64,000 nucleotides of DNA, taken from assembly GCF_963855985.1 (NCBI RefSeq), contig NC_087098.1:15954501-16018500 (forward strand). The letters are read 5' to 3'. The position numbers were made by a program, and so were the translations under genes. Within the stretch, counting starts at the first letter, position 1; the number at the start of each line of letters is the position of its first letter. Source of the DNA: Ostrinia nubilalis (taxonomy: Eukaryota > Arthropoda > Insecta > Lepidoptera > Crambidae). The notes under the pieces are model-generated. The model was given only the letters and a program-made list of their open reading frames with translations. It had not been told where the DNA came from and searched no databases. Below, one piece after another: positions 1,796-56,764 of this stretch.

Positions 1796-3167
1796 TCAAA
1801 AATGTTGATTTATAAAATTTTGTAGTATCAACTGCGACCTACGCCTCAACAATGAAGGTCGGTTGTCGTGAACACTGTTCTCCGTCGAAAGTTGCGGAGT
1901 TACAGGGACCTGCTCCATATGTTGTTCTGAAAAATATTATGAATTTGTCAACATTTTGTCATAAAGATTTGTATTCCTTATGTACAGTCAAATTGATAAC
2001 ATTTACCTAACAATGTGTCATTCATATCAATGGCTATATTATGTAATACAGCCAATGCTATGATCACAGCTTTTCCATTTTGGAGGCTTACTGGTAAGCC
2101 ATGGAGTAGGCATTGGAACCGCTGCTTCCACACCCCAAAACACCTTTCAACAGTGTTCCTAGTTGAGATGTGAGCATTATTGTATGCTTCTTCTTCTGGA
2201 CGACTAGGCCTTAAAATAGGTGTAAATAGATATGGCAGAAGAGGGTAGCCCGAATCGCCAATAAGGCGTCCTCTAAACTGCCTATCCTCAAATCGTTGTT
2301 TTATATTGCTCTCCATAAAAATTCGACTGTCATGTGTACTGCCTCGCCATCTAGCCACTATATCCATTATTTTGAGGTCAGCATCACAGACAACCTAAAA
2401 TAAAAAAAACAGTATCCTGTAGGTAATCCATCCAATAATATAGTGTTGAATGTTGCTAAAATTTAGATCATACAAAGTAAAAATTATAGACATTATTAAA
2501 ACAAATCTTTCTCTGTTGTAAACTGTATAAAATCAAAATATATTTTACCTGAACATTCAGGGAATAATAGCCTTTTCTATTAATATAGTACTGGGCCATG
2601 TCACCTCCGGTTTTTTTAATTTTAATGTGGGTGCAATCTATGGCTCCTATCACCCCAGGAAAATTTTTAATTGCTCTAAATTTGGCACTAATTCTTTCCT
2701 GCTCTCCTATAGTGATAGGCATTTTGATGAAGGAATTTGCCTTATTCGCGATTGCATGCGCGACTCTGGCGCATATCCGGCTCACTGTCGGCTGACTTAG
2801 GCCATGGAGGTCACCAGCATCATCTTGTACCTGAAAATGTATGAAAATAATTATAGCAGCCACGACAAAGGGATAAAATAAAACACTTTTTTGTGCTTAC
2901 CTCACGACGTCCCCAACATCTTATGGCCACTAAAACTTGCAGTTCAGGACACGTGCCACCACCTCTAGCGCTCTGAACCAGATCATCTTCCACCAAATCT
3001 ATGATGGTGCGCACTGTGTCCTTATTGAACCTATATTTTATTTTAAAATTTAGGTCCCGCAAATCGAATGGGTTGCTTCGTTGGCGGTAGAGCTTTCTAC
3101 GTCGCGCTGGGTCGGCATTATTGGCTAAATGCACAATTGCATTTATAGCATTCATTTTCACAAGCAA
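1796..3167 (-). CDS. HARBI1-like Harbinger transposase, four exons, apparently intact
   Basis: Exons read on the minus strand are 3167-2901, 2830-2549, 2394-2007 and 1926-1796. All junctions are GT-AG and in phase, giving 1068 nt and 355 residues, close to the roughly 350 residues usual for HARBI1-like proteins. The DDE triad can be placed at GAIDCTH (Asp near residue 154), VVCDAD (residues 184-189) and TRNTVERCFG (Glu near residue 266). GLSQPTVSR near residue 100 fits the helix-turn-helix ahead of the core, and the protein ends in INQHF. No stop or frameshift breaks the model. The enzyme would cut and paste the element into TWA-type targets. Reading exon 3 on past its donor gives a short alternative end at 1978, but exon 4 restores a family-like C-terminus, so I prefer the spliced form. 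Confidence 0.9.
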
Positions 3168-4077: not shown

Positions 4078-5169
4078 TTACCGATTCACAATGCAGGGTT
4101 CGCAGGTCCCAGGTTCCAAGTAGGCTGGGTGGCACTGGGGGCAAGCGGGGTTCTCCCCGTAGCTGGAGCGACCAGTCCTCGCAATTTTCACTTGGAAAGA
4201 CGTCTGTGCATTCTCATCTTCATAACCTGGGTGCGGCTTATCAAGAGGAAACACGTAGTCGGGGACGAAATACGAACTTATGTTGTACTCCGTGTTGATG
4301 TTACTCGGAGTGGGGTCCACCGTGACCGGAGTAGGCCTAGTCACGTCGCTGAAAGGACTACGCCCTCTTACAGTCTTTCCTTGGACCTGTGTGTTGTTGA
4401 CCGTAACGTTACTTTCTTTGGGCGGTTCCAGATCAAATGCGGGGACAGCCCATTTCCACTCGTAGTACACGGGTGGTCCCATAGTAGTCGACGGCTGCTC
4501 TGAAAAGTCTAACTTAGGCGGCAGTAGTATTCTATTTGGAGTAGGCACCGCCGGATTGTCTCGTACACTAACAGTCGGTTCCGTCGGCGTCGGCTTGGAA
4601 TTAATGCTATCGAATCTAGTTCCTTCTGTCACACCTTTATCGTTATCCTTGTCTAATTTATTGAAGTTGCCAACGTCCTTATTCTTCCGCGGCGTTCTGT
4701 CTTCCTCCGAGCTGACTTGCCCTTCGGGAAGGTGCTTATTCAGATCGATGATTTCAGATCTAGACATGGCGGTCTTGATGGAGTCGGGCGAGCTCGGGTC
4801 GAATCGTTTGATGAAGTTGTAGACTGGATCGTCGGATTTGGTTCTAATGTCTATATCGGGGAATTCTGTTGTGGTGGTGTCTGGGATAGGAGGCTGGAAG
4901 TATTTTGAAGGGGTGGGGATTTTGTTGTTTTGGTTGTCGTCTTGTACTTCTGGGGTGGGTTGGAAGGTGGGGGTGAGTTCCTGGGAGGCGGCGCCCGCCA
5001 AGTGGTCCTGGTCGGTGGGGTCTCTCTTGAGCCCGAACTGGACGCCGGTGCCGGTGGACCAGCCGGTGGGCGGGCGGTAGTTCTGCTTGGCGCTGTCCAG
5101 CCCGTTGTTGTTGGAGCTCGAGATCGAGTCTGCAATGCCTACGATACTGTTGCCGGGATGTACGGGGTA
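4078..5169 (-). CDS. Exon 5 of the chitin-binding gene: disordered tail and CxxC end
   Basis: The exon starts after a TTACAG acceptor at TAC (5169), in phase with exon 4, so the ATG at 5190 is intronic. It encodes 363 residues rich in Pro, Thr, Ser, Asp and Asn with no recognised fold. The last 25 residues contain CPQC and CEPC, a compact four-cysteine end that may form disulfides. The middle has many charged and TP-type motifs and one NVTV glycosylation-type sequon. Confidence 0.85.
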   Translation of the reverse strand, partial: YPVHPGNSIVGIADSISSSNNNGLDSAKQNYRPPTGWSTGTGVQFGLKRDPTDQDHLAGAASQELTPTFQPTPEVQDDNQNNKIPTPSKYFQPPIPDTTTTEFPDIDIRTKSDDPVYNFIKRFDPSSPDSIKTAMSRSEIIDLNKHLPEGQVSSEEDRTPRKNKDVGNFNKLDKDNDKGVTEGTRFDSINSKPTPTEPTVSVRDNPAVPTPNRILLPPKLDFSEQPSTTMGPPVYYEWKWAVPAFDLEPPKESNVTVNNTQVQGKTVRGRSPFSDVTRPTPVTVDPTPSNINTEYNISSYFVPDYVFPLDKPHPGYEDENAQTSFQVKIARTGRSSYGENPACPQCHPAYLEPGTCEPCIVNR

Positions 5170-8100
5170 CTGTAACATTGAATTAACCATAATTAATATG
5201 ACTATTATAAACGATACTATGATTAAGTTTCAATTTATCACTGGGTAGGCTTTGTATCAGACGTTCTTACCCTAGTTTCAGCTTCCCTGAGCCCGTCGTA
5301 GTAGTTGGCGTTGGGCGGCACGGACAGGATGTCGGGGCGCGGGGTCCTCTGCTTCATATCCTCTTCTGACACGAACGGCTTGTCTCTCTGACCTGAAACA
5401 TTACGCAATATTCTGAATCTTTGTTCATTTATATTAAGTTCAATGTCAATCCATCGAAAACGAGGCTTTGGGATTAATAAGACCTCAGAAAAAGACGGTG
5501 AATTTCAAGAAAATCCCAACTAATATTATAAATGCGAAAGTAACTCTGTCTGTCTGTCTGTCTGTTACGCTTTCCCGCTTAAACCTCGCAACCGATTTTG
5601 ATGAAATTTGGCATAGAGATAGTTTGAGTCCCGGGAAAGAACATAGGATAGTTTTTATCCCGGTTTTTGAAACAGGGACGCGCGCGATAAAGTTTTTCTG
5701 TGACAGACAAAATTCCACGCGGGCGAAGCCGCGGGCGGAAAGCTAGTCTTACATAAATAGAGAAAAGCATCTAGAAAAAAAAAGTGTTTAGAGTCGCATC
5801 TTGAACAAAATTTTAAATAAATTGATTTTACTAAGTTATTTTTTTAAACACTCAACATAATCAAGAATCTAAAATCTCTATCTATCTAAAGTCAGATTGT
5901 ATCTTTAATTTTTAACAAATCTATCTCTTTGTCTGCAGAACAAAACTTGCAAACAAACGCATACATTTACTTACTTAACTGACCTGCCACAACACTAGAT
6001 TTGCCTCGCTAGAATCACACGCATGACAAGAGACTGTATCGAATATCAATAATCGCACAGAGGCGTTACCGTGATCCTGTGGTTAAGGCACATTGTAACA
6101 TTAGGCACACGCGTCGTGTTACATTTCTCACCTTGCTGTTACACGATACCTCATTACCAATGACAAGCTCTTGACCGTGAGGTGTAACAATAACATTATC
6201 AAACGGTGCATGAAATCATATGCATGCTATTATCTTTCTGGTTCCATTGACGCCTACTTGCTGTATAACTAATTTCAATAACCTTTATGTATATGAGACG
6301 AATATGATCAAATTTTGACTTGGCCATCGCATGAAAACACGTGTAAATTAAATTATTTAGTGCGATGGCCAAGTCAATAATTTATGTAAAACGTTAAAGA
6401 TTTCCTGGCCTGGACTTGGTATTACATGGATCTCACAACTTTTCACCGTAGAACAACTGAGTTGCGAGACTTGGTTTTTTTGACAAGTATTGTTTTTGAT
6501 GGGATCTCATTTCTTTTTGTATTTTGTAAACAGTTCTACTTTTTTCCTTTTCGGTACCTTCTACTTATTGTATGTATACCTATCTAACCAGCAACGAATT
6601 TTCTTAAAGTCGGACTCTCTCTGACTTATGAAATTTTCTTATTTTTGTAGGTAGCCTTCCGTTTTCTCTTTTCCGGTTGTACTTCTTGAGCTGAAAACTG
6701 GACGGAAATTAAAAAATGTTACTCGACTTGGCGGGGACACTACCGTGTGCCTTTATATTTAATTTTATATGATATTACAAACTTATTTAGGTAAGTAGTT
6801 AAATATTTATAAAACTGGACCGAAATTGAAAAATTTTGCTAGACTTAGCGGTTGCACTACCGTGCCCCCAAATATTTTAGTTTTTCCTTGATTCATACAC
6901 CAAACACTACTTATATTCCAAATTTGAAGCTTCTAGGTCTGCTAGAAGTGCCTTAGAATTTTGATGATCGGTGAGTCAGTCAGTCAGTCAGGGAGTGACA
7001 AAATTAAGAAACTTTGACCCGTTATAATTCTTAAACTACTGGTTCAAATTGAATGAAATTTGAAATATACCGTGTCTTTACAATGCCTGCATGGATACTG
7101 AAAATTCAGTCTTCTAGTTTTATCCACAACGATGATACAGGGGATCGAAAATGGCCTGAATTGCTTCGAGAAAAGGATGATACGGCCGTGCCGCTTTTTT
7201 GCTCGACTTGGTGGGGGCACTGCCGTGCCCCCAGATAACCTTTATGTATATGAGACGAATATGATCTTTGCTTTATCATACTTTTTTGCAAGTATTTTTT
7301 GTATGTCAGTTTAATACATTTCCGTATTTCATAAGTTAGGTATTACTAGATTAGAATGTACGAAATAAAATTAGTAAAGTTCCTGTAAAGCTATACCAAA
7401 ACCTAGTTACCTACATTTTCAAAATTATGTCAATTATTATTTCAGTGTGATGATCTTACCAGAAACTTCATCAGCAGTTGTAGTAGATATTGTTGTCCCA
7501 CTCTCAGCTTTCGTAAATAAGAGTGTCATTTCTTCAATTTATTTGTTCCTCTATTTTGGTTTCAGCAAACGTGCCCCGGCTGAACTGACGCATCAAAACA
7601 TAATGCTTCATGATTAAAAAAATATTACGTCAGTTACTGTTATTACACTGATTGTTATGGTTAATCGATTTGAAAAGGATTTTGTCGAATATTTAACTTT
7701 ATCACGAAGTTTTTAGATGAACTCATCGAACTCACGAATTATGCTGTCATAACCTTCTTTGATTGAAAGGTTCGACAACACAAGGTAAGTTGAAAAAACC
7801 TTTAGGTAACCTATACAAAAATGTTGTAAAAAATGTAAAGCCTAAGCTGAGAGCCTAAGATAGATCTCAGAGCAGACTTTGTGTGGAGTAATTCCTAAAG
7901 CTCTATTAGATCTGTTTCATAATATGTAATGATGTTTTGTCATGTTTTCATTTCTGGAGGTAGGAAGTAAAGGAGTAGGAAGCGTTTATTAAAATATTAA
8001 TTACAAACGCATGAAATAGTTTCAACTACCTAACTCTGATGTCTTTCGAAGACCAGCATTATGGATCACTTCAGACTTCTAGATAGAAATTCGATGTAGA

Positions 8101-11100
8101 TCTGTCTCATGACTCTGAGGAGTAGGAAACCCTCAGCAGATTACCTCAATGTACGATACTACAAAACTATTTATTTTATCTTATCTGAAGCACCTTCGTT
8201 TAGCATCAAATCAATGTTCTGTTGCTCAGTCTTTGCTTGTTTTGTGCTGATCTGATGCGACTCAACGGTTACCGCATACTTACAAGTTCCAAAGTTTCAG
8301 CAGCGGACGCTTGTAATGTCTTGTAAGAACTATAAAATCATTTGCGAAACGTTTATAGGTCGTTCGTGCTTATGTCAACGGGTACGTGAGTGTCCATTAT
8401 CAATTTCAAGCTTATCAAAATTTTGTGGCTACCGCGGAAGTTGGGCAAGTGGGTTGACGGCGTAACCTCACCTTTCACCGGCGTTAGTATGCGGCATATG
8501 CAATTACAGACCACAGATTTGTTTTACAAGTACACACACGATGGTGGAATAAAATAATTTGTTGTTTCTTCACGGAGGCACAGTTCCCATCTCGTGCTCC
8601 CACAATACTGCATGTGCACTCAGTAATGCTTATTTTGATTGCCAATTCAAATTGGTCTCGAAATAAAATAAATTAGAAGAAAATAGAAGCAGTTACGAAT
8701 CACAGGAAAATAAATTATCTAATTGTCTGGTCAAGTGGCTCGCACTTCAACTTAAACGATGACTGGTCAAAGGGAAAATGTATAAATATTGTGATGACGA
8801 GTAATTGTACTTTGAATCATAATAATTATGCTTAATAATAATTTATCTGCATAATTTTGCATGTTTGTCCATAATCTAGTCGGCAAAATTCTCGTACTTA
8901 TTTACGAACATATTTTAACTCGTAAATACTTACTTGCATGCATTTAATATTTAACTATAAAGTTAAAACATATTAACAACAATATTGAAAAGAGCTTTAA
9001 AAGTAAGGGTGCTGTAGTAAAATGGGCCCACACACAGTTGACAATCGCAAAGGTACTTCCACTAATAACCAATGAAACTGGATCTAGAGATTAGCAGAAA
9101 TAGAACTCAGGTGTTTATGAAGCCCCGTCCTAAAATCCTCATAAGCCTGTAAAATCTTCATGTCCATTTGTTGACGTGCTGTGATCAATTACTCGTGCGC
9201 CTCGGAATCGCGGGCGCAGTCAAGGGCGTTCACCTAACATTGACATACGTTGCGCCTATCCACGTAACGCACTTGCGTAATTCGAATATTCATTACCAAT
9301 TTTGATCGCGACTTTGTCTGTACCAACCGATCCCAACTAATATTATAAATGCGAAAGTAACTCTGTCTGTCTGTCTGTCTGTTACGCTTTCCCGCTTAAA
9401 CCTCGCAACCGATTTTGATGAAATTTGGCATAGAGATAGTTTGAGTCCCGGGAAAGAACATAGGATAGTTTTTATCCCGGTTTTTGAAACAGGGACGCGC
9501 GCGATAAAGTTTTTCTGTGACAGACAAAATTCCACGCGGGCGAAGCCGCGGGCGGAAAGCTAGTAAGAAATAAAATGATGTTAACAAATTTTTCTCCAAA
9601 TCTAGATTCTTTTAGATCAAAAAGTTTAGGTTTTTTAGATAAAAAAATACTTATAATCATAAATTAGGTGTGTAACACACTGAGACATTACGGACAGCCA
9701 GGCTTACCATCTGTGACTTTGGATAATGTTGACAGTATAGAGCCTTATTAGGCTTATCTTGCTAATTTAATCATAAAAGAGTTGATGAAGTTGAAGCTCT
9801 ATGCGATTAAAATCAGTTCAACTCTATAGCCTCGATTACATAACCAATGGACACGAAGTTATATCAGACAAAAGACTGCGGAATTTGTATTCACCTGCCA
9901 AGTGAATACAGCTATCAAACACAAAATCCTACCATTAACTCCTCGGATAGTCTTGAATAGGCTTTGATGAGGCTGAGGCCTCGCTAGTGTGAACAGTAAA
10001 ATGTATTATGAGTATTAAAGATTATTAATAAATAATGGGAGGACGGTCGATCATAAATAAACGACTACAAAGAAAATTGGATGCTAAATTGCTAAGTGAT
10101 CAATGACTTTTTAATGAAGGATCTAAGTCCTATGAACAGCCAAGACTAGTGAATCTAAATACCTACTGTATTACTTTAAGTTTTTTGGAATTAACCTTAT
10201 GTTCTTATGTAGATAGAGACAAAAAGCTAGTTCTAACAATACCTCCATACATCCTGAGCACGCAAAGCTGCGAGCATAAACTATCTGTAGTAAGTAGGTA
10301 TTTATCGTTAACTACAATCTTGTTATTTAAATCATTATGATAAAGAGAGGTTGCCTAAAAATAACCTGTTTACAAGTTCAAAGTCTTCCGCATATAAAAT
10401 TACATGCTGGTACACTTATCGTTGTTATCTGCACATCATTCTGACTGAAGTGACAGTCCATTCATTCCCACAATACTCAATGAAACTCGTTTAGAAATGA
10501 TTCAGAGCTCGTGAGCAAACGCTTCTGGTATATTCCACGTCTCAGCATAATGCACCAAATTACAGCAAGGTTAACGAACCATTCAGGTTGCAACGGTTTC
10601 AAGTGGCTACAGATAATCAAACCAGTGTATAATACAATTATTAAGCAGATAATGCTTCGACCTTAGTTTGTAATACACTTATTATTAGATAATGTTAAAA
10701 TTACTATAGATAGTTCTTCCGTTTGTTATTTTGGGTCTTCCGTGCAATGAGTTGGAAGGTTGTTATTAAAATTTGCATCTAGCTGTTTAGTACAGGCACT
10801 AGCCTGTAAGCATTAGCTTTAATTTTTTTTTCTCAAAGAAGAATAAATGCGTTCAACTGCCTTACATAGACAGGCAAGGAGATTTATACCTGCTTACATA
10901 GATGACGTAGCGATTGAACGACTAAAACTGACTTCCCACTGGCCTATCTATGAGTTTCGTAACTTGTATTAAAACGAATCAGAACACCAGAGATTTTTAG
11001 GTTTGCGCTTCAAGTTACTTATTATAATTTTCTGTAGAACTATTGTTAAATAAGTACGAAACGGTACCTGAATTCCGCGTTGACCTGCGTACGCGCGTTA

Positions 11101-14100
11101 CATGTGAACATAGCCTTATAGTGCCGTCTTTTTTTATTGCGCTGATTCTGCTCCTCACTGATGGCTGGAGCCTTTAATGGATGGTATTGTTTGATTATAC
11201 ATACAATGTCACTATTTTGTTGCAATTTCTTACAAAACTTGCGCGCAAAAAGCAATTCTAGTATGTAAATCATCAAACTTCTAATGTTCGTAACTCAGTT
11301 CAGACTGAGTTTAGAGGTATACATGTCATAGTAAGTTTGGTTTATTACATTATATTGTAATAAAAAAAAACATTTTGTCGAACACGGTTTGGTCGATGGC
11401 CGCGTGAAAAAAAAAGACGCCAATTTCTGGCATTGTCTTTTGGGTACCACTTAAACCAATGAACAGGTTGGCGCTATAGTCGCTCTCGCTCTTGGAGCAG
11501 TTGACCATGTACCAGTGTTCGCAGATGAGCATACGCTACTGGAACAGCGTCGTGTTGGGGCACGAGTAGCTGAACTGTCGCCCGAGGCCGTCCCACATGT
11601 GGAACATATAATATAAGACAACTCTAACGCCATAGCCAGTGACCCTTACCGATGAGCAGGTTGGCGCTGTAGTCGCTCTCGCTCTTGGAGCAGTTGACCA
11701 TGTACCAGTGGTCGCAGATGAGCATGCGCTGCTGGAACAGCGTCGTGTTGGGGCACGAGTAGCTAAACTGACGCCTGAGACCGTCCCACATGTGGTACAC
11801 ATCGTTCGTTCGTCGTTTTCAGCCAAATGACGTCCACTGCTGGACAAAGGCCTCCCCCAAGGTTTTCCACAATGAACGGTCCTGCGCTGCCCGCATCCAG
11901 GCTCTTCCCGCGACCTTCACCAGATCGTCGGTCCACCTAGTAGGAGGCCTGCCCACGCTACGTCTTCCAGCCCGTGGTCGCCACTCGAGAACTTTCCTGC
12001 CCCAACGGCCATCGTCTCTACGAGCTATGTGCCCCGCCCACTGCCACTTGATTTTGGCAATTCTGCGAGCTATGTCGGTTACTTTGGTTCTCCTGCGGTA
12101 CCGGTGCGTCCCACATGTGGTACACATAATACAAGACAACTCTTACGCCATAGCCAGTGACCCTTACCAATGAGCAGGTTGGCGCTGTAGTCGCTCTCGC
12201 TCTTGGAGCAGTTGACCATGTACCAGTGGTCGCAGATGAGCATGCGCTGCTGGAACAGCGTCGTGTTGGGGCACAAGTAGCTGAACTGCCGCCCGAGACC
12301 GTCCCACATGTGGTACACATAAGACAACCCTAACACCATAGCCAGTGACCCTTACCGATGAGCAGGTTGGCGCTGTAGTCGCTCTCGCTCTTGGAGCAGT
12401 TGACCATGTACCAGTGGTCGCAGATGAGCATGCGCTGCTGGAATAGCGTCGTGTTGGGGCACGAGTAGCTGAACTGCCGCCCGAGATCGTCCCACATGTG
12501 GAACATAATATAAGACAATTCTAACGCCATAGCCAGTGACCCTTACCGATGAGCAGGTTGGCGCTGTAGTCGCTCTCGCTCTTGGAGCAGTTGACCATGT
12601 ACCAGTGGTCGCAGATGAGCATGCGCTGCTGGAATAGCGTCGTGTTGGGGCACGAGTAGCTGAACTGCCGCCCGAGATCGTCCCACATGTGGAACATAAT
12701 ATAAGACAATTCTAACGCCATAGCCAGTGACCCTTACCAATGAGCAGGTTGGCGCTGTAGTCGCTCTCGCTCTTGGAGCAGTTGACCATGTACCAGTGGT
12801 CGCAGATGAGCATGCGCTGCTGGAACAGCGTCGTGTTGGGGCACGAGTAGCTGAACTGTCGCCCGAGATCGTCCCACATGTGGTACACATAAGACAACCC
12901 TAACACCATAGCCAGTGACCCTTACCAATGAGCAGGTTGGCGCTGTAGTCGCTCTCGCTCTTGGAGCAGTTGACCATGTACCAGTGGTCGCAGATGAGCA
13001 TGCTTTTGAAACAGCGTCGTGTTGGGGCAAGAGTAGCTGAACTGTCGCCCGAGACCGTCCCACATGTGGTACACATAATATAAGACAACTCTAACGCCAT
13101 AGCCAGTGACCCTTACCGATGAGCAGGTTGGCGCTGTAGTCGCTCTCGCTCTTCGAGCAGTTGACCATGTACCAGTGGTCGCAGATGAGCATACGCTGCT
13201 GGAACAGCGTTGTGTTGGGGCACGAGTAGCTGAACTGTCGCCCGAGGCCGTCGCACATGTGGTACACCTGGAAAAGAAAAAAAGGTCGTTGAGACAGGGC
13301 ATTTGCTTCAGTCACGTACTAGTACCACATTTGGTACACGTGGAAAAGAGAACGTAATTGGGAAAAGGGATTAACGTCAGTGACCAGTCGCTCATTTGGT
13401 ACACCTGCAAAAGGGAGTAGTCATCATCTTAGGTCTTACAGTGATAATCTTCATAAATCGAACTTTAACTTTTACTATAGTTTTGACAAACGTATTACAA
13501 TAATTGAAACCGCGATTCCTTCTTTCCTTCTGCTCAACATCTACAGTAACAAATACTCGTATTTATAAAGAGCTAGTTTGTGACTTTGTTTGTAAGATCT
13601 CTAGAACTACAAAATCAACTATAAAAATTCTTTCAGCAGTAGAAAACTACATCATTCCGAATGGCTGAAATTCACTTAGGTACGATAACATGGAGGGTAG
13701 ATAGAAGACCATCATTAACATTATTTCAGGAAAATAATAATTACCTCTTATAAAACACATTTGGGTTTACGTAACTATCAAAGAGAACACAATAAATCAT
13801 TGTGGGTGTAGGCTCTACCAATAATAATTAATCCACAACCATGAAATAGGAAGCGTAAAATAATTTGAGGATTAATAATTATGATGTAGCAATTACTTCC
13901 GACTGATGAACCAGGAAGTAAATGCTCGAATTATTCAAGAATTACCAAAGTTTTGATTGTGCCAATTATTCTGAGCCGTTTGTTAAACTATCATGATTGT
14001 TGTCAGTAAAAAATATAAATAAACTATAGTGAACTCTTAATATAAACGGTTGTAAAAAAGTATCTTGCAAATGTAATAAATCAATTAATAGCAAACGGTA

Positions 14101-29100: not shown

Positions 29101-32100
29101 AGTTAAAATGGAGTGTGCAATTGAAAAGGTAGTACAAGTATTTAAGTCAAGTGTTTCGTAGTTTCAAAACAATGTCTATAGCAGCGCAGCCTTAAACCCA
29201 TGTCAAATGTCAATGAGATGCGCGAGCGCAACGGCTGCGACGCTGCGACTGTCTCTCGTGACAGTTAAAGGATCTAGAGAAATAGAATCATTTGGTATTT
29301 TTCCTTAAAATATGCATTAGTTTTAATAAGTAGTTCATATGTATCAATAATATTATTTCTCCAACTCTTTCAACGTTATCAATACTTAATGATGATTAAA
29401 AATATTAATTGGAAAAAATGTATTAATTTATTTACACTAGCTTTACTCAAGGCAGACTTAATGCTGATTGGGATTCTGTATGTAACCATTGTTCACATAG
29501 AAGAAGTGAGGCTGTTGGAGTTGAATGCAGTTGGACATAGTGAAGAGTATGCAGAATGAAATTGATATCTTTAGCATCCTTTTAATAAGACTCTACCCAC
29601 GATACATAGTACAAACCCCAAATATAATAAGTCTTATTTTATTTGCATACAAATCATTTAGGTACAAACATTCACATAGATGATGCCAACGATTTTTTCG
29701 CCCTGTATAGTACGACAAAAATAAGTAGGTAAAGTATTTTTTAATAAAAATATAGTATAATGTGCCATCTTGTACAAGAAGCTTACAAGAACATAAAGTA
29801 CATATTACTGGCTATTTATGTTCGGATGAGTGCAATTAATTAACTTGCTCATCGTGCAACAATTTCTTACAACGTTCGTGTCTGTTACAAACAAATATAC
29901 ACAAACACATCCTTATATCGAAGTAATAAGGTTGGAAAATGGACACCATTCAAATAGATTTTCGTGGTGAATTGTACATCAACTTAATAGCATAGTAATT
30001 ATTTCACTACAGCTATTGATATTGATTGTAGGCTTCCTGATTTGCTTATGTAACTATTATCGTCTATAATAATCTCGTCATGCTCATTTCAATTAATAAG
30101 ATTTGAATATTATTATGTTCTTTAACGTCATCAATATAAATTAATTCATCTCAACGGCTCTACATTTTTATGAAGCTTCAAAATAAGCACCATAAAACCT
30201 ATAAATTGTCTTGGGGTATTGTGGACTAATCATCTGCTGCGGCACTATGAAATTGATTGACGTAATTTATTCAATTTTATTTAAATAAATATCTATTACT
30301 TGGCATTTGCAAAAATCTTTGAATAATTTAAAATGATTGTATGTTATTCGATTGTTATATAATACAATATTTCTCACATGAATCATTATCTGCTAAAAAA
30401 ATTATATTTGTATAAAAATAAAACGATGACTTGATGACGATGAATTCGTTGGTTGGCTTATTAAAATGTTAGTTCCGTTTTTTTCTTTAAGGCTAAGGAA
30501 ACCTAAAAAGAGCCCGTTATGCAATGCATATGCATAATCAGTACGCAGCACTTAGCCTGTTTTATTGCAGAACGATGCAGGCATTGCAATCAAATATTGC
30601 AATCGCACCTAAAGTTAAGTGTAATGCAGCCACAGTGTAGGATGGTACGCATCTGCCCTCTAAACTCCTCCTCCTCCTCTCGCCTTGAAGAGGCCCGGAT
30701 TACAATTATGTGCTCGGGAAAGACTGAGTGAGTCCCTAGCTGTTCGCATTTTAAACAGTTAGAACGCTTAGCTGTGTGGTTTAAGCCGAATCGAACAGAT
30801 CTAAGTGAAACACACACACTTCACAGCTTCTTACGTATTCTCGCGTAGCTCATTTTCATCGCACGTCCCTTGCGGAAACTTATGCCCGTTTTCATTATCA
30901 ATCCCTAATTAATTTTAAGTCTATGACAACAAAATTCATACTTATGTGTTACCATAGGGGTGACTTAAAAATAAGGGATTGATGGTGAAAACGGGCATTT
31001 CATTCCGTCAAGGGGTAAAAACGGCGGTAACCACGAAGTTTTAGTTCGAAAATTTAGATATACGTTACGATACTATTAACTAATTATAATTTATTATCCT
31101 GCTCACCTGACAGCCAGTTTCGACGTCGGCGTAGTATCCCGACGCTCGCCCCTGGCATGTGAACCTGGTTCGTGGCGCGTTTGTTTCTTTAACTCCCTGG
31201 AAAGAAACAAAAATAAGTTAATGAAAAGCCTGTTTAAGTTTTTCGAACTTGATTGTTGATTCTACATTTTATCATCATCATGTCAGTCAGATGACGTCCT
31301 TTTTCAGCAGTGGCCTCCTCCAATGATTTCTATAATTATCGGTTGGTACATTCTACATTTACTTATTTAGTATTAAAAGCCAGAAGGCAAAAAATATGCT
31401 ATATCTGTGTTTTTAAGTCCATTCAATATACTCGGTAGCTTAATAAGTACCTTTTAGTAAGTTATGTATCTACTAACGTACTTTTTCCTTGCAGGCGTTC
31501 AATGTTGGCTGTCGTAGGTGGATGGTTACACTAAAATATTTTTTTGCTCGAACAAATCAAATCGTGAAAATACACTTGCTCTATACATTAAATTTAAAAT
31601 GTATAGTTGTTGCAATTCACGAAGTCGAGTGAGCTTTACACGTGTGGTGGCTCGCTACTGTTCGTTTTTGAAAAGTTTGGATAGACATTACTTACACTAT
31701 CGTTATACACGTACACAGCAAAGCTCACTTGCCTCGTGAGTTGCAAGAACTACGAGTATACTTGATTACAAATTGTCATTATTATGTCTTTAATCAGGCA
31801 TTAGTAATCACGATACATACGGAGACCGAATGCCTCAGGGTGAAAGGCCAATTTGGACGTAAATCAAGACTCGCAAGAATGATACAATTTGATTGATCAT
31901 GATATGTACTAGGTACTTAGGGCTGCTACCAATCAAAATGAAAAGAAGAAAGAAGTCAAATTCATATTGTCAATTATGAAAAGGGCCGGTGAAGTAGGAG
32001 TCTAGAGGCATAAGGACGACTTAAATTCAGGGCTTCAAGTAGAGACACATCATAAATATCTTACAGGCCCCTTGATAAGTAATAAGGTTTGAAGTTTAAA

Positions 32101-53100: not shown

Positions 53101-53813
53101 ATGGTAGGCACACTGAGACATAATTATTTATGCCAATTTTAAAAGAGGCAAAAATTGCTAATAATATTGTAAATGTAAAAATAGAACTAAATATTTTTGC
53201 GCGTTAGTATTATTTCTTGAACAGAGAACAAAACTCTGGCAAACGAAGTATAAATTTTAGCTCAAATTGGAAACTTGATATTTTGTTAATCAAATTAATC
53301 GCATAAATTCACAGTTTATTGTTGCACCTGACCAAAACACAATGTCAACCTTGCATTAAGGCTGTGACCGATCGGACGCCGTAGAATATTGGGCCGGTGA
53401 CGAAAACTAAGCAAGAAAAATTAAAAATCGTTTGTTTGAAAGACGTGGTTGTTATAAAAATTAAAATACCTATTTGTTTTGCTTGTTACCTACCTAAATA
53501 AATGCATTTCAATATGCAATTTATGTGAGAGATACATAATTATCAACAAACAACGAGAATTTTATATTGCGTGTCTAGAATACCTACAAAATGTTGTCCT
53601 TCTATCAATATTTTGCTCTATCTATTTTTAACCTAATTTTTTCACCTTTGCCCGCAGTGACCTATCTTGTTCATATTAAAGACCCCAAAAAGACCATCAT
53701 AAGTACTCGTAAATAACTAAAAAAATCATACTAACCTGCGTAATAGCCACTGCCAGATGCAGGCAGGCCACCGCCGCACACAACCACAAAAACTGCACTC
53801 GAGACATGTTCAT
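4078..53813 (-). CDS. Secreted single-domain chitin-binding (peritrophin-A) protein, CPAP1-like, five coding exons
   Basis: Coding exons on the minus strand are 53813-53736, 31196-31107, 13267-13117, 5392-5271 and 5169-4078. Junction phases are 0, 0, 1 and 0, and the total is 1533 nt, or 510 residues. Residues 1-26 carry a signal peptide. Residues 27-106 hold one ChtBD2/CBM14 domain whose six cysteines lie in FTC, TGC, HMC, YSC, LIC and VNC contexts. The rest is a low-complexity Pro/Thr/Ser/Asp-rich tail ending in CPQC and CEPC. A secreted protein with one such domain and a long tail fits cuticular proteins analogous to peritrophins, which bind chitin in the extracellular matrix. This role comes from the family and was not tested. 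Further small exons in the long introns cannot be excluded. Large introns packed with repeats explain the 50-kb span. Confidence 0.85.
5271..5392 (-). CDS. Exon 4 of the chitin-binding gene
   Basis: A 122-nt exon between a TTTCAG acceptor and an AGG|GTAAGA donor. It starts in phase 1, completing the Gly codon begun by exon 3, and reads QRDKPFVSEED through PPNANYYDGL to AETR. This is the linker after the chitin-binding domain. The intron to exon 5 is only 101 bp (5170-5270). Confidence 0.9.
5514..5746 (+). mobile_element. Non-autonomous Helitron, copy 1 (233 bp)
   Basis: It starts TCCCAACTAATATT after a host A and ends CTAG before a host T, with a GC-rich hairpin (GCGG...CCGC) just before the end and a (TCTG)n tract inside. 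These are the usual Helitron termini without a target duplication. It codes for nothing and lies in intron 3. It is base for base the same as the copy at 9331-9563 by my reading. Confidence 0.85.
5747..6277. other. Intron 3 sequence, nothing recognised
   Basis: AT-rich intronic sequence between a Helitron and the hairpin-rich element. No exon, hairpin or repeat was recognised. Confidence 0.5.
6278..7266 (+). mobile_element. Hairpin-rich repeat element, copy 1, flanked by a 32-bp direct repeat
   Basis: The body (6310-7234) is bracketed by two identical 32-bp direct repeats at 6278-6309 and 7235-7266. One end carries a hairpin with a 15-bp perfect stem (6317-6331 with 6361-6375). A module of the form CGACTTGG, G-run, CACTGCCGTGCCCC recurs near 6722, 6840 and 7203. 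A (TCAG)n tract is at 6970-6990. A second copy is at 20475-21272 in the opposite orientation. It has no protein of its own. Class unknown. Confidence 0.7.
7267..9330. other. Intron 3 sequence, nothing recognised
   Basis: About 2 kb of AT-rich intron without coding potential, recognised repeat or strong secondary structure. Confidence 0.5.
9331..9563 (+). mobile_element. Non-autonomous Helitron, copy 2 (233 bp)
   Basis: Same length, orientation and sequence as 5514-5746, again inserted between A and T with TC and CTAG ends and the GC-rich 3' hairpin. Identity of two copies 3.6 kb apart points to recent movement or local duplication. Confidence 0.85.
9564..11456. other. Intron 3 sequence, nothing recognised
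   Basis: AT-rich intron between the second Helitron and the exon-copy array. Open frames near 10149 and 11046 are short, lack recognisable motifs and were judged chance. Confidence 0.45.
11457..11607 (-). pseudogene. Exon-3 copy 8 (most decayed)
   Basis: Full 151 bp, but with an in-frame TAG next to the MLIC motif, Cys to Trp at cysteine 3, no acceptor, and the donor changed to GTTTAA. It is the oldest-looking copy and marks the downstream edge of the array. Confidence 0.9.
11650..11800 (-). pseudogene. Exon-3 copy 7
   Basis: Full 151 bp with an open frame, the GTAAGG donor and Cys to Trp at cysteine 3. No acceptor. A non-LTR fragment is inserted directly at its transcript-upstream edge. 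Confidence 0.9.
11803..12106 (-). mobile_element. 5'-truncated non-LTR retrotransposon with 21-bp target duplication
   Basis: The minus strand encodes the C-terminal end of a non-LTR polyprotein, with motifs such as KWQWAGHIAR, GRPPTRWTDD and QQWTSFG before a stop and a short 3' UTR. Identical 21-bp direct repeats at 11782-11802 and 12107-12127 flank it, as expected of target-primed reverse transcription. It has landed inside the exon array, so it is younger than that part of the array. Related 3' ends lie at 17626, 27624 and 32552. The clade is uncertain; RTE-like is a guess. Confidence 0.9.
12168..12318 (-). pseudogene. Exon-3 copy 6
   Basis: Full 151 bp, open frame, GTAAGG donor, Cys to Trp at cysteine 3 and Ser to Leu before cysteine 4 (YLC instead of YSC). 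No acceptor. Confidence 0.9.
12356..12506 (-). pseudogene. Exon-3 copy 5
   Basis: Full 151 bp, open frame, GTAAGG donor, Cys to Trp at cysteine 3, Gly to Asp beside it. It is nearly identical to copy 4, including shared silent changes, so the two arose by a late duplication. No acceptor. Confidence 0.9.
12547..12697 (-). pseudogene. Exon-3 copy 4
   Basis: As copy 5, exactly one 191-bp period upstream in the transcript. Open frame, donor kept, cysteine 3 lost, no acceptor. Confidence 0.9.
12738..12888 (-). pseudogene. Exon-3 copy 3
   Basis: Full 151 bp, open frame, donor kept, cysteine 3 changed to Trp, no acceptor. Confidence 0.9.
12926..13074 (-). pseudogene. Exon-3 copy 2 with 2-bp deletion
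   Basis: 149 bp: a 2-bp loss between the QQR and MLIC codons shifts the frame. Cysteine 3 is Trp, the donor is kept and there is no acceptor. Confidence 0.9.
13117..13267 (-). CDS. Exon 3 of the chitin-binding gene: second half of the domain
   Basis: The only array member with a proper acceptor (a pyrimidine tract then TTTTCCAG) and with all cysteines. It reads VYHMCDGLGRQFSYSC through MLICDHWYMVNC to NLLIG and ends in phase 1 at a GTAAGG donor. It supplies cysteines 3 to 6 of the peritrophin-A domain, joining TGCQ from exon 2. Reading past the donor meets TAG within nine codons, so use of any later donor in the array would truncate the protein. Confidence 0.95.
13321..13415 (-). repeat. Two short remnants of the exon-3 acceptor region
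   Basis: Near 13325-13350 and 13390-13415 the start of exon 3 (GTGTACCA on the minus strand) is repeated behind CTTTTCCAC and CTTTTGCAG respectively. The second still has a CAG acceptor form but no exon body follows. They lie just upstream of the real exon in the transcript. Confidence 0.7.
13416..16840. other. Intron 2 sequence, nothing recognised
   Basis: About 3.4 kb of AT-rich intron. No exon, known repeat or long hairpin was recognised. Confidence 0.45.
16841..16960. mobile_element. Harbinger-type MITE, 120 bp, TTA target duplication
   Basis: Nearly the whole element is an inverted repeat with ends TGCCCGTTTTCACC and GGTGAAAACGGGCA, arms of about 45 bp and a short centre. TTA stands on both sides (16838-16840, 16961-16963). 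A sister copy is at 30883-30997. Confidence 0.85.
16961..17625. other. Intron 2 sequence, nothing recognised
   Basis: AT-rich intron between a MITE and a LINE tail, with no recognisable element. Confidence 0.45.
17626..17786 (-). mobile_element. Non-LTR retrotransposon 3' end, decayed
   Basis: Matches the first half of the insertion at 11803-12106, from the GTTCGTTCGT edge through the QQWTSFG-encoding end to the RPPTRWTDD region, with substitutions and small indels. Confidence 0.8.
17787..19206. other. Intron 2 sequence with one GC-rich patch
   Basis: AT-rich except for 18415-18545, which is rich in CG and GC-box-like CCCGCCC and contains several CGCG steps. It could be a regulatory element or old repeat. 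No gene was found. Confidence 0.35.
19207..19557 (+). mobile_element. Helitron-like repeat, diverged (351 bp)
   Basis: Starts TCTATACTTATAAT after A and ends GGCCGCTAG before T, with (TCTG)n inside and an ACGAAGTCGCGGGC stretch before the end, parallel to the 5514 family but of another subfamily. Confidence 0.75.
19558..20271. other. Intron 2 sequence, nothing recognised
   Basis: Mostly AT-rich intron; no recognisable exon or repeat before the RT remnant. Confidence 0.4.
20272..20470 (-). pseudogene. Non-LTR reverse transcriptase C-terminal remnant
   Basis: The minus strand reads CKCGFVLQSTKHMMACPACP and then, after a frameshift and stop near 20353, KATDIATVVVEFWADTV. This looks like the zinc-knuckle-like C-terminus of Jockey-type LINE polyproteins. 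It is broken and flanks the hairpin-rich element. Confidence 0.6.
20475..21272 (-). mobile_element. Hairpin-rich repeat element, copy 2, with palindromic end
   Basis: Reverse-oriented relative of 6310-7234. It shares the GC hairpin end, the (CTGA)n tract (20710-20750) and the conserved stretch between them. Here the far end is a long inverted repeat (arms about 20953-21098 and 21127-21272) where copy 1 has a single arm. The 32-bp direct repeat of copy 1 is absent. Confidence 0.7.
21273..27623. other. Intron 2 sequence, no gene recognised
   Basis: About 6.3 kb of AT-rich intron. Open frames at 22755, 24492 and 26233-26716 have no recognisable motif. A GC-richer patch at 26520-26640 is noted but unexplained. 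Confidence 0.4.
27624..27682 (-). mobile_element. Non-LTR retrotransposon 3' tip
   Basis: Nearly identical to the first 60 bp or so of the insertion at 11803: TTTCAGCCAAATGACGTCCA then the QQWTSFG-coding stretch. Severely 5' truncated. Confidence 0.8.
27683..30882. other. Intron 2 sequence with an AT-rich tandem repeat
   Basis: No gene was recognised. At about 28215-28300 a roughly 37-bp AT-only unit, containing ATATTTCATATTATTAAATA, is repeated. The rest is unremarkable intron. Confidence 0.45.
30883..30997. mobile_element. Harbinger-type MITE, 115 bp
   Basis: Same ends and arm sequence as 16841-16960. The left flank is TTA and the right flank TTT, so one side of the target duplication has mutated. 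It lies about 110 bp downstream in the transcript of exon 2. Confidence 0.8.
31107..31196 (-). CDS. Exon 2 of the chitin-binding gene: first half of the domain
   Basis: A 90-nt, 30-codon exon between CTTTCCAG and CAG|GTGAGC. It reads GVKETNAPRTRFTCQGRASG then YYADVETGCQ. The FTC, GYYAD and TGCQ motifs are the start of an insect peritrophin-A domain (cysteines 1 and 2) and connect in phase 0 to VYHMC of exon 3. It has no ORF-length signal and is easily missed. Confidence 0.92.
31270..31345 (-). mobile_element. Non-LTR retrotransposon 3' tail
   Basis: (CAT)n, then a GACGTCC...CAGCAGTGG...GGCCTCCTCCAATGAT segment, the reverse of a common lepidopteran LINE end. Fragmentary. Confidence 0.6.
31346..34514. 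other. Intron 1 sequence with one LINE scrap
   Basis: No exon was recognised. 32552-32630 holds a decayed minus-strand piece of the 11803-type LINE tail (CACTGCTGGACAAAGG and CGCATCCAGA). The rest is AT-rich. Confidence 0.45.
34515..34620 (+). mobile_element. Non-LTR retrotransposon 3' tail with (GAT)n end
   Basis: GACCAACCGGTCA, GGGGGAAGCC, GCAGTGGACGTCCTACGGCT and a terminal (GAT)n tract mark the 3' end of a lepidopteran LINE, sense orientation. Confidence 0.75.
34621..38371. other. Intron 1 sequence with one LINE scrap
   Basis: AT-rich intron. 35748-35795 is a further scrap of the LINE tail (GGGAGGCCTATGTTTAGCAA). No gene was recognised. Confidence 0.45.
38372..38889. mobile_element. TA-flanked inverted-repeat element, copy 1 (518 bp)
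   Basis: Ends of about 35 bp are inverted: ACTCAACGTCAAATAAACCG at the left, the reverse at the right ending GACGTCGAGTG, with TA on both outer sides. No transposase is present. The copy at 47567-48084 has the same length and about 90 percent or better similarity by eye. A Tc1/mariner-type non-autonomous element is likely from the TA target. Confidence 0.8.
39286..39421. mobile_element. Palindromic MITE, about 136 bp
   Basis: Arms of about 60 bp beginning TTCGGCCAAACCAACG pair almost fully and contain GATCACACGCGATCA and GCGTGCAGCGATGGCGA. The centre is short. Strong cruciform potential. No clear target duplication. Confidence 0.8.
39422..40149. other. Intron 1 sequence, nothing recognised
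   Basis: AT-rich intron. The open frame starting at 39891 runs on into the LINE remnant and is not taken as a gene. Confidence 0.4.
40150..40370 (-). pseudogene. Non-LTR polyprotein C-terminal remnant, second family
   Basis: The minus strand encodes MEVDGTRARGRSPMRWTDQV then EEWRRIV, the RGR-P-RWTD type end of lepidopteran LINE polyproteins, distinct in sequence from the 11803 family. Higher GC than the surroundings. Upstream RT is missing. Confidence 0.65.
40371..43671. other. Intron 1 sequence, nothing recognised
   Basis: About 3.3 kb of AT-rich intron without a recognisable exon, hairpin or repeat. Confidence 0.45.
43672..43789. mobile_element. Harbinger-type MITE, 118 bp, TTA target duplication
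   Basis: Ends GGCTGAGTTGCACCA and TGGTGCAACCCAGCC are inverted, with further pairing of TTTGAC and GTCAAA segments inside. TTA is present at 43669-43671 and 43790-43792. A different family from the 16841 MITE. Confidence 0.85.
43858..45238. mobile_element. Foldback element of 1.38 kb with arms of about 570 bp
   Basis: The left arm (43858 to about 44430) and the right arm (about 44669-45238) are near-perfect inverted copies around a loop of about 240 bp. Each arm holds the same 106-codon open frame (44072-44392 plus, 44701-45021 minus). The frame begins TTG rather than ATG, and its product (KTKFICFGQTVLALMFGK, later KGHLNQCNPIKAYELDAP) is unknown to me. The outer ends read TTAAATCGG on both sides, so a TTAA-type target is possible. 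No transposase is present. Confidence 0.75.
45530..46110. repeat. Lepidopteran LINE-tail-like repeat, split by a MITE
   Basis: The motif CCTTCCAGCTCCATCAT occurs at about 45591 and 45978, with ATATTGCATGGTCATCC and TTTCAGCTTAATCGGTTG after the second. This looks like two partial copies of an interspersed repeat separated by the 264-bp MITE. Confidence 0.5.
45628..45891. mobile_element. Palindromic MITE, 264 bp, TA target duplication
   Basis: Inverted ends CAGGGTGTT...GGGTATATGAGCCGACACTAG and their reverse, arms of about 120 bp with ATGTTAACATG inside, TA on both sides (45626-45627 and 45892-45893). Tc1/mariner-type by target. Confidence 0.85.
46111..46904. other. Intron 1 sequence, nothing recognised
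   Basis: AT-rich intron apart from a short GC-rich stretch with GGCCGGCC near 46160. No element was recognised. Confidence 0.4.
46905..47036. mobile_element. Inverted-repeat MITE, decayed relative of 52932-53113
   Basis: Starts GTGCTTACCATGAGTTTACG and ends with the diverged reverse (AACGTAAAGTCATGATAAGC). The middle GAAGATTTTA...TTCTTGAAAGTAGCCGC matches the 52932 copy. Confidence 0.75.
47037..47566. other. Intron 1 sequence, nothing recognised
   Basis: AT-rich intron with no recognised feature. Confidence 0.4.
47567..48084. mobile_element. TA-flanked inverted-repeat element, copy 2 (518 bp)
   Basis: Same orientation and length as 38372-38889, with scattered substitutions. Ends CACTCAAC and GAGTG are flanked by TA at 47565-47566 and 48085-48086. 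Confidence 0.8.
48085..48728. other. Intron 1 sequence, nothing recognised
   Basis: AT-rich intron; the short open frame at 48438 carries no motif. Confidence 0.4.
48729..48827. mobile_element. Palindromic MITE, about 99 bp
   Basis: Ends GGCCTAGGATGCGCGCC and GGCGCGCATCCTAGCC are inverted; inner segments around ATCGAT pair less well. The target duplication is unclear. Confidence 0.7.
49195..49295 (-). repeat. Tail of the 61493-type SINE
   Basis: On the minus strand it carries GTTGTCTAGTACCCATAGTA, then the TTTGGGACTAGAAGC stretch and an AT-rich end, the same 3' part as the SINE at 61493-61755. The tRNA-like head is missing, so it may be a truncated SINE or the LINE it borrowed its tail from. 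Confidence 0.7.
49433..49611 (-). mobile_element. Helitron-like repeat, 179 bp, minus orientation
   Basis: On the minus strand it starts TCTATATATATAAAAATG after A and ends GGTCAGCTAG before T, with the TGAACGGCTGAACCGATTT segment common to these lepidopteran repeats. Confidence 0.75.
49612..52931. other. Intron 1 sequence, nothing recognised
   Basis: About 3.3 kb of AT-rich intron. Open frames near 50275, 51306 and 51602 are short and motif-free. Confidence 0.45.
52932..53113. mobile_element. Inverted-repeat MITE, 182 bp
   Basis: Ends GTGTGCCTACCATGAGTTTA and its reverse pair over about 45 bp, including CACCTAACGTAAACTCATGG and a GCTAGCGA segment. Sister copy at 46905. Confidence 0.85.
53114..53735. 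other. Start of intron 1, nothing recognised
   Basis: AT-rich intron immediately downstream, in the transcript, of the signal-peptide exon. No repeat was recognised. Confidence 0.45.
53736..53813 (-). CDS. Exon 1 of the chitin-binding gene: signal peptide
   Basis: 26 codons reading MNMSRVQFLWLCAAVACLHL then AVAITQ, ending at a CAG|GTTAGT donor in phase 0. Short polar start, hydrophobic core and small residues (AVA) before the likely cleavage site make a typical signal peptide. Two in-frame ATGs stand two codons apart; the first is taken as the start. It is over 22 kb from exon 2, so the link rests on phase, strand and the need for a secretion signal. Confidence 0.75.
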
Positions 53814-55828: not shown

Positions 55829-56745
55829 TGTGACGCGCCCCGCGACGCATCGACAGCCCTAGCACCGTGCACGGAGATTTTGACAACCCTACGGCTGCGC
55901 GGCCGCACGCCGCACGGACCGAGCTAATATAAGAGACGGCGGCGACCGCGGGCGCCTAGCATTCGCTCGGGAGCCATTGTAACAGCCAGACGTTCGCGCG
56001 CGCGTCTATCATTCCCTCGGCTGCATTGCAAAGAGTCCCTAGCGAATAGCTATCCACACTGTTCCTTACTAACCCTAACTGTTCGACTTTGGCTTGATCC
56101 GATACCTCGTCATTAATCCGCGGCTTGCCATAAAGCGTCGTGTCGAGACGTTCTATCGTTGATAGCCAACCGGTTCTCGTCCTTACCGAGTAGTGCATGA
56201 GATACTCATCCCGAACCTGCGGTAGCAATCCTGCTGCCACCCTTCCTGAACTTCACACCCCCTCGCCCCGTAGGTCCAACGCCTTTCCCCAGTGGTCGCG
56301 CTCACTATTGAGGCTTCGGTCTCTGGCTCGAGCTAATCGGACCACATCCTACCCCCCTAGTTATAAGTATCCAGACTAACACTCGATAAACCTCGCACAG
56401 GGCGCCGCCCCTCTCGCGGATACGAAAGCTAGCTAACGGGACGCGAACCGGGCGCGTCGTTATTCCTCTTGTTGTAATTAGTAAATTGTGATATAACTTG
56501 TAAAGTACTTGTAAACTTGCTCACTATTAAACGATAGCGATTTAGAGTCAGTGAAACTAGAATAAGTGAACTATTGTGGAACCTAGATTATAAAGTGCCA
56601 TTGTGTTATTGATTGTGCGTTTCCTTGGTCAAATATCCCTGTAGGCATCCTAGATAGGTACACATCCCTCATCGCAGAAGGCGAACTGGGACTTAGTACT
56701 AAACAGCGGGGTGTCAGACTGAGCTAGCTAAGACGCCCCGTTGCA
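55829..56745 (+). repeat. 5' LTR
   Basis: 917 bp from TGTGACGCG to CGTTGCA. A TATAAG at 55928-55933 may be the TATA box. The first half is GC-rich compared with the flanks. The open frame on its minus strand repeats in both LTRs and is not a gene. Confidence 0.93.
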
Positions 56746-56746
56746 A

Positions 56747-56764
56747 TGGCGCCCAACTAAATAA
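56747..56764 (+). promoter_or_regulatory. Primer-binding site
   Basis: TGGCGCCCAAC begins two bases after the LTR end. This matches the tRNA-Lys-type primer site known for gypsy-like elements; the match to a host tRNA was not checked. Confidence 0.75.

What the first reader, a model, noticed from the sequence alone, without database searches (positions are those of the whole stretch)
11457..13267. Tandem amplification of half a chitin-binding domain: one real exon and seven copies with donors but no acceptors
The unit that was copied starts exactly at the first base of exon 3 and runs through its 5' splice site, leaving out the 3' splice site. This puts one acceptor in front of up to seven GTAAGG donors. 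If a later donor is used, the transcript hits TAG within nine codons, so the array could act as a splicing trap lowering output, or it may simply be neutral. Most copies keep an open frame, which is striking for intronic DNA.
Basis: partly seen in the sequence, partly recalled or inferred. Interest (0 to 1): 0.85.

Follow-up and report, generated by a model that had tools for sequence, protein, structure and literature searches.

The report
Array of acceptor-less exon copies
In a corn-borer-like moth, one exon of a chitin-binding mucin-like gene has been copied seven times into the intron behind it, nearly always with its exit splice signal but without its entry signal, so the copies most likely sit as harmless passengers and offer a natural test of how cells choose among identical splice sites.

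Summary
The array is real. On the minus strand, exon 3 (13267-13117) of a jiangshi (js) orthologue is followed by seven copies, 93-95% identical to it over the exon part, with a ~190-bp period. Six of seven keep GTAAGG donors; no copy start resembles an acceptor. The gene model matches an annotated Ostrinia furnacalis protein at 99%.

All seven copies carry Cys->Trp at a chitin-binding-domain cysteine that was present in every homologue I could read. Copy 6 is split by a retrotransposon-like fragment with a 21-bp target-site duplication. Copy 7 has lost its donor. The acceptor side is also duplicated: 13404 is a second strong acceptor-like site, 13339 a broken one. Four of seven copies start with the exact exon bases; three start ATGTTCC, suggesting microhomology.

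Open frames are weak evidence: about 0.9 stops expected for 18 changes, one seen. A possible excess of synonymous changes is unexplained.

I read this as DNA-level tandem expansion whose copies lie idle in a 7.7-kb intron; published exon-definition minigenes used only the first donor. A splicing trap is not excluded: I had no RNA, population or related-genome DNA. It is an unusual variant of tandem exon duplication, probably neutral, useful as a natural experiment.

The parts
53736..53813 (-). js exon 1, coding part (26 residues, signal-peptide-like)
   Evidence: tblastn of P0003, 26 of 26 identical
31107..31196 (-). js exon 2, first part of the CBM_14 domain
   Evidence: gene model and tblastn
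13340..13404 (-). upstream repeat unit A: begins with an exon-3-like start GTGTACCAAATG directly after an acceptor-like TTTTGCAG; if used, the frame ends in TGA after 30 codons
   Evidence: alignment to the exon-3 acceptor region exceeds 1000 of 1000 mononucleotide shuffles
13268..13339 (-). upstream repeat unit B: exon-3-like start after a broken acceptor (TTTTCCAC), ending in the real acceptor
13117..13267 (-). exon 3 (E3), functional: four of six domain cysteines, acceptor CTTTTCCAG, donor G|GTAAGG
12889..13074 (-). copy c1: Cys->Trp, 2-bp frameshift, donor kept (exon part ends 12926)
12698..12888 (-). copy c2: Cys->Trp, open, donor kept (12738)
12507..12697 (-). copy c3: starts ATGTTCC, Cys->Trp, open, donor kept (12547)
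12319..12506 (-). copy c4: exon part identical to c3, donor kept (12356)
12126..12318 (-). copy c5: Cys->Trp, Ser15->Leu, open, donor kept (12168)
12107..12127 (-). target-site duplication, 5' side (ATGTGTACCACATGTGGGACG), including the first bases of copy c6
11803..12106 (-). 304-bp insert, looks like the 5'-truncated 3' end of a non-LTR retrotransposon, sense to the gene, ending in GACGAACGAACG; splits copy c6
   Evidence: 21-bp flanking duplication; related pieces elsewhere in the window, e.g. 17785-17628 at 84%; no Pfam match
11608..11802 (-). 3' target-site duplication (11802-11782) and copy c6 (from 11800): Cys->Trp, Gly9->Arg, open, donor kept (11650)
11457..11607 (-). copy c7: starts ATGTTCC, Cys->Trp, TAG at codon 24, donor lost (TTGGTTTAA)
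5271..5392 (-). js exon 4, the partner of exon 3 in the gene model
4078..5169 (-). js exon 5 with stop codon

Best explanation
A DNA-level tandem expansion of an exon-plus-donor segment of the jiangshi gene. First (inferred), a short similarity between the start of exon 3 (GTGTACCACATG) and a site about 42 nt into intron 3 (ATGTTCCACATG-like) let replication slippage or unequal exchange duplicate the segment between them, so copies carry exon and donor but no acceptor. The copies share Cys->Trp (shown in all seven; one early event is inferred), which also completes a 10-bp palindrome CCACATGTGG (shown). Multi-unit blocks were then duplicated (shown: a 300-bp stretch repeats at a 570-bp, three-unit spacing with 293 of 300 identical; unequal exchange is inferred), copies probably swapped pieces (four-gamete conflicts), and a retrotransposon-like fragment later landed in copy 6 (shown: 21-bp target-site duplication). 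In the transcript (inferred), exon 3 is defined between its strong acceptor at 13267 and its own donor at 13117; the six later donors have no acceptor to pair with across a short exon, so the array leaves with intron 3 and is close to neutral.
For: Gene identity: 99% to Ostrinia furnacalis LOC114358330 isoform X1 over the whole query, with exon 3 joined to exon 4 in the annotated protein. Array and alignments. Trp in 7 of 7 copies, against Cys in 160 of 160 database homologues whose column could be read (159 by pattern, P0167 by eye; 29 of 189 could not be read). No acceptor-like score at 8 of 8 copy starts. 293 of 300 identical at three-unit spacing; four-gamete conflict in 11 of 21 column pairs. 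Junction ATGTTCC in c3, c4 and c7, exon-type in c1, c2, c5 and c6. Exon-definition rule: upstream of two identical donors used exclusively in five of five minigenes (PMC9225289, section 8). No copy or read-through sequence in 191 protein records.
Against: Changes among copies may be more often synonymous than neutral drift predicts: 10 of 18 (expected 22-28%, P 0.002-0.013), 10 of 19 if the shared Cys->Trp is added (P 0.003-0.021), 7 of 15 or 7 of 16 if three changes polarised only by parsimony are dropped (P 0.03-0.13). Variable sites in c1-c6 cluster in codons 1-15 (8 of 45 versus 3 of 106, P 0.003). Gene conversion from exon 3 could cause both; not shown. The four-gamete conflicts may also come from repeated mutation. 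The pre-duplication intron site is not observed: copy 7 has lost its spacer, and the GTGGTACC just beyond it has an equal in 3.6% of 26-nt intron stretches. Intact exon copies hold weak internal acceptor-like sites (up to 4.6-4.8), above the exon-5 acceptor (2.0) and near exon 4's (5.4). The minigene rule was shown with 365-nt flanking introns, and weakened donors in the larger constructs gave exon skipping; the same paper recalls earlier work in which the downstream of two donors won under intron definition. The O. furnacalis protein is an annotation whose RNA support I did not see. No RNA data.
Confidence: 0.7

Rival explanations
1. Splicing trap: some transcripts use a later donor (or the 13404 acceptor), gain a stop codon and are degraded, so array length tunes js output.
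For: Six extra donors match the real one over G|GTAAGG; read-through and 13404 usage both give stops. In flies both loss and overproduction of js are harmful (PMC9339309, abstract and passages), so dosage could matter.
Against: Exon-definition data predict use of the first donor (PMC9225289). None of 191 protein records holds read-through or Trp sequence, though decayed transcripts would be under-represented.
Confidence: 0.12
2. U1-binding platform: the repeated donors bind U1 without splicing and help define exon 3 or suppress premature polyadenylation in intron 3.
For: Seven donor sequences lie ahead of 13 AATAAA/ATTAAA motifs in the rest of intron 3; U1 protection of intronic polyadenylation sites is reported for human, mouse and Drosophila (PMC5499120, start of abstract in a search listing).
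Against: Nothing shows that the sites were kept for this purpose; copy 7 lost its donor. An intron of 36% GC is expected to hold such A/T-rich motifs anyway (not tested against shuffles).
Confidence: 0.06
3. The copies are or were alternative exons (mutually exclusive type) whose acceptors were lost, or which use weak internal acceptors.
For: Possible excess of synonymous changes; internal acceptor-like sites score up to 4.6-4.8; upstream acceptor duplicates exist; best pairing of the spacer downstream was reached by only 11 of 200 shuffles.
Against: Trp replaces a domain cysteine in all seven copies; inclusion from the internal site (e.g. 12816-12738) would add 79 nt and shift the frame. Spacer pairing upstream is ordinary: 31 of 200 shuffles as good.
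Confidence: 0.05
4. Assembly artefact: copy number inflated in this assembly.
For: Copies c3 and c4 are identical over the exon part; the own genome could not be searched.
Against: Exon parts of copies differ by up to 8%, spacers come in three lengths (37, 40, 42 nt), and one copy carries an insert with target-site duplication: not what misjoined identical reads give.
Confidence: 0.05
5. RNA-mediated origin: the unit starts at an exon edge because an RNA copy was reverse-transcribed into the locus.
For: Exact exon-start boundary in four of seven copies.
Against: The unit runs 37-42 nt into the intron and lacks exon 2; three copies start with non-exon bases; head-to-tail growth by unequal exchange would explain the rest.
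Confidence: 0.02

Closest known systems
Tandem exon duplication, including mutually exclusive exon clusters such as Dscam (survey PMC9013439, parts 1-2 of 4 read; PMC6071210, abstract and discussion read)
   Same: Same-gene exon copies in head-to-tail order, arising by DNA duplication that takes flanking intron with it.
   Different: Copies here lack acceptors at their starts, so they cannot be chosen as ordinary alternative exons; all share a damaging Cys->Trp; no clear docking-site pairing found.
Earthworm metallothionein exon-4 duplications and intronic minisatellites (PMC12783039, passages read)
   Same: Copies of an exon that do not appear in the final transcript, in a gene with intronic tandem repeats.
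   Different: As far as the passages show, the repeats and the exon copies are separate features there; here the exon plus its donor is the repeat unit.
Competing identical 5' splice sites in minigenes (PMC9225289; abstract, passages and section 8 read)
   Same: Donors of equal strength behind one acceptor.
   Different: Natural and sevenfold here, not engineered in pairs.
Intronic tandem repeat that alters splicing (ABCA7 VNTR, PMC5954066; start of abstract in a listing only)
   Same: A tandem array in an intron may affect splicing of its host gene.
   Different: The ABCA7 unit was not examined here, so whether it is exon-derived or donor-bearing is not known to me.

Membership tests
jiangshi (js) orthologue | single N-terminal chitin-binding domain after a signal peptide | tested here: met
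   one CBM_14 match at residues 14-67 of the exon 2-5 protein, E 1.3e-10; exon 1 looks like a signal peptide by eye, no predictor run
jiangshi (js) orthologue | similarity over the whole protein to proteins named js | tested here: met
   99% to O. furnacalis LOC114358330; 70% to 'jiangshi [Aphomia sociella]', both over the full query
Mutually exclusive exon cluster | each copy has its own acceptor and donor | tested here: not met
   acceptor score negative at 8 of 8 copy starts; donor in 6 of 7 copies
Mutually exclusive exon cluster | copies encode a usable version of the domain | tested here: not met
   Trp for a conserved Cys in 7 of 7; frameshift in c1, stop in c7
Mutually exclusive exon cluster | competing RNA pairing (docking and selector) | tested here: inconclusive
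   exon-3 spacer only, against 433 nt upstream and about 1 kb downstream: 31 of 200 and 11 of 200 shuffles as good or better
Mutually exclusive exon cluster | one copy per transcript | not testable with these tools
   no RNA reads
Tandem exon duplication (general) | homologous exon copies in tandem within one gene | tested here: met
Poison-exon / decay-coupled splicing control | premature stop if the alternative site is used | tested here: met
   LLIGKGHWLWR then stop
Poison-exon / decay-coupled splicing control | the alternative site is used in vivo | not testable with these tools
   no RNA reads; no protein trace in 191 records
Non-LTR retrotransposon insertion (insert in c6) | target-site duplication | tested here: met
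   21-bp perfect duplication
Non-LTR retrotransposon insertion (insert in c6) | reverse-transcriptase domain or named family | tested here: inconclusive
   no Pfam match for the fragment; RTE-like is my recollection only

The most novel reading that the evidence does not exclude
Array length acts as a rheostat on a dosage-sensitive gene: each added acceptor-less unit adds a donor that diverts a small share of transcripts to decay (or adds U1 binding that stabilises exon 3), and the synonymous bias among copies reflects continuing exchange with, or selection through, the functional exon.
Probability: 0.12. Interest if true: 0.75.

Novelty: new variant of a known kind. Interest (0 to 1): 0.42.

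Why it matters
Choice among identical donor sites can be tested in built minigenes; here nature has put seven matching donors behind one acceptor in a gene whose loss and excess are both harmful in flies. Comparing array lengths among individuals would show directly whether extra donors cost output, and the copies show how a partial exon can multiply without evidently breaking its gene.

Tried and rejected
Searched proteins with a 58-aa copy query (31 hits) and a 114-aa exon 1-3 read-through query (63 hits), and scanned all 191 records held for Trp-form or read-through motifs: 0. Caveats: the database is clustered at 90% identity, and only 120 of 291 hits of the first search were listed. Looked for pairing of the exon-3 spacer with nearby intron: 31 of 200 shuffles as good upstream, 11 of 200 downstream, the latter borderline; folding of exon and two units was within one standard deviation of shuffles. 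Looked for the donor-plus-spacer motif in viral contigs: 0. Tested whether upstream units hold remnants of the spacer: A shares GGTCACTG (26 of 1000 shuffles as good, suggestive at most), B nothing (907 of 1000). Acceptor scores come from a matrix that I wrote from memory, so they only rank sites. The tree of copies had support values of 0.45-0.91 and was not relied on. For the synonymous count I left out columns where only exon 3 differs (codons 5, 19, 38) and the columns beside the c1 deletion; one search repeats it with codon 5 added. For the clustering test I left out the four columns at the c1 deletion. No age in years is given, for lack of a calibration. Literature: ten searches were answered. 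Those nearest the question (32, 42, 62, 63, 67) showed no title or abstract opening about a donor-only exon array; 32 listed 25 of 31 papers, and most papers were seen as listings only. That is absence in an open-access library under those terms.

Full report
What the gene is. The minus strand carries a gene with five coding exons: 53813-53736, 31196-31107, 13267-13117, 5392-5271 and 5169-4078. Its protein (exons 2-5) is 99% identical over the full query to Ostrinia furnacalis LOC114358330 isoform X1, and several homologues are named jiangshi or js. The window is therefore probably from Ostrinia or a very close moth (inference; its source was not given). Pfam finds one CBM_14 domain. Exon 3 alone matches profile positions 18-53 of 53. 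In Drosophila, js encodes a secreted mucin-like protein; loss and overproduction both lead to defects and death (PMC9339309; abstract and passages seen).

What the array is. Behind exon 3 stand seven copies, c1 to c7, starting at 13074, 12888, 12697, 12506, 12318, 12125 (interrupted, resuming at 11800) and 11607. Unit lengths are 186-193 bp apart from the insert. Exon parts differ from exon 3 at 7-10 of 149-151 positions, that is 93-95% identity, and c1-c6 differ from each other at 0-10. Each full unit is the exon plus 37-42 nt of intron including the donor. The donors are identical over G|GTAAGG at 13117 and at six copies; c7 reads GGTTTAA. The first-stage coordinates and donor list are correct.

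No acceptors at the copy starts. With a simple consensus matrix written from memory, the exon-3 acceptor is the best site on the window's minus strand (15.3), and the eight scored copy starts (including 12125 and 11800 separately) range from -7.4 to -21.7. Against a flat 'no acceptors': exon copies also hold internal acceptor-like sites scoring up to 4.6-4.8, comparable with exon 4's acceptor (5.4) and above exon 5's (2.0). The same internal site exists in exon 3 itself, where the annotated orthologous protein does not use it.

(1) All seven copies have TGG for TGC at codon 5, replacing the third of the six domain cysteines. The cysteine is present in 160 of 160 database homologues with a readable column; 29 of 189 could not be read by the pattern, and one apparent exception, P0167, was a pattern artefact. 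The change also extends CACATGTG to the 10-bp palindrome CCACATGTGG. (2) Copy c6 is split by 304 bp flanked by a perfect 21-bp duplication; related pieces lie elsewhere in the window. It looks like the 3' end of a non-LTR retrotransposon; Pfam does not name it, and 'RTE-like' is recollection. It landed after copy 6 existed. (3) The acceptor side is repeated too: units starting 13404, 13339 and 13267 share polypyrimidine tract, AG (broken in the middle one) and exon start. Each pairwise alignment exceeds all 1000 shuffles. The 13404 site scores 11.4, among the four best on the strand, and would lead to a stop after 30 codons.

How it formed. Three of the seven copies (c3, c4, c7) start ATGTTCCACATG instead of GTGTACCACATG. 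If the original duplication joined the exon start to a similar intronic site, the junction would carry the intronic bases, as these may do, and the exact exon boundary in the other four would come from later exchange with exon 3. Exchange is suggested by four-gamete conflicts in 11 of 21 informative column pairs (repeated mutation is the alternative) and by a spacer of c6 identical to exon 3's over 42 of 42 positions. A 300-bp stretch repeats at 570 bp, three units, with 293 of 300 identical, so multi-unit blocks were duplicated. The ancestral intronic site itself is not seen. GTGGTACC just beyond c7 is a possible relic, but 3.6% of 26-nt intron stretches contain as good a match.

Open frames and selection. 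Five of seven copies are open. Among 18 changes counted by parsimony by eye, 0.9 nonsense changes are expected and one occurred, so open frames are not striking. Against simple neutrality, 10 of the 18 are synonymous (expected 22-28%, P 0.002-0.013). Adding the shared Cys->Trp gives 10 of 19 (P 0.003-0.021), and dropping three changes polarised only by parsimony gives 7 of 15 or 7 of 16 (P 0.03-0.13). Because of the four-gamete conflicts the changes may not be independent, so these values are rough. Variable sites in c1-c6 crowd into codons 1-15 (8 of 45 versus 3 of 106, P 0.003). Gene conversion from the constrained exon 3 would explain this, but I did not prove it.

How it works in the transcript. 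Introns 2 and 3 are 17.8 and 7.7 kb (from the exon coordinates). In five minigenes designed for exon definition (365-nt flanking introns, two donors of identical strength), the donor nearest the upstream acceptor was used exclusively. With both donors weakened, it kept its preference in the smaller constructs, and the larger ones mostly skipped the exon (PMC9225289, section 8). The abstract and passages add that short introns favour the opposite choice. The later donors here would define exons of 342 nt and more. I therefore expect exon 3 to be spliced normally, as in the annotated orthologue, with the array discarded. No protein with Trp or the read-through tail was found among 191 records, which is weak evidence because decayed transcripts leave little trace. 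A trap of a few percent cannot be excluded.

Verdict. The most likely reading is a near-neutral, minisatellite-like array of acceptor-less exon copies that have probably kept exchanging sequence. I did not see this variant of tandem exon duplication in the listings of five on-topic searches of an open-access library. Its value is as a natural experiment on donor choice and on how partial exon copies arise and persist.

Noticed in passing
window 55825-61266, + strand: LTR-retrotransposon-like element with 922-bp direct repeats (55825-56746 and 60345-61266, 99.8% identical) around an ORF (56839-58974) with gag, aspartyl protease and integrase zinc-binding matches; that ORF has no reverse-transcriptase match.
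   Followed up: partly
window 1981-2394 and 2471-2896, - strand: Two ORFs matching DDE_Tnp_4 transposase downstream of the js gene, the second below the curated cut-off; an ORF at 234-938 on + has no Pfam match.
   Followed up: partly
window 13268-13404, - strand: Repeated exon-3 acceptor region (polypyrimidine-AG-exon-start units, one broken) upstream of the donor-side array: the exon is flanked by repeats of both its edges.
   Followed up: yes
window 11457-13266: Copies may show more synonymous changes than expected, and variable sites are concentrated in the first 15 codons; cause not shown.
   Followed up: partly
window 5513-5747 and 9330-9564: A 235-bp segment occurs twice with 100% identity inside js intron 3, perhaps a recent mobile-element copy.
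   Followed up: no
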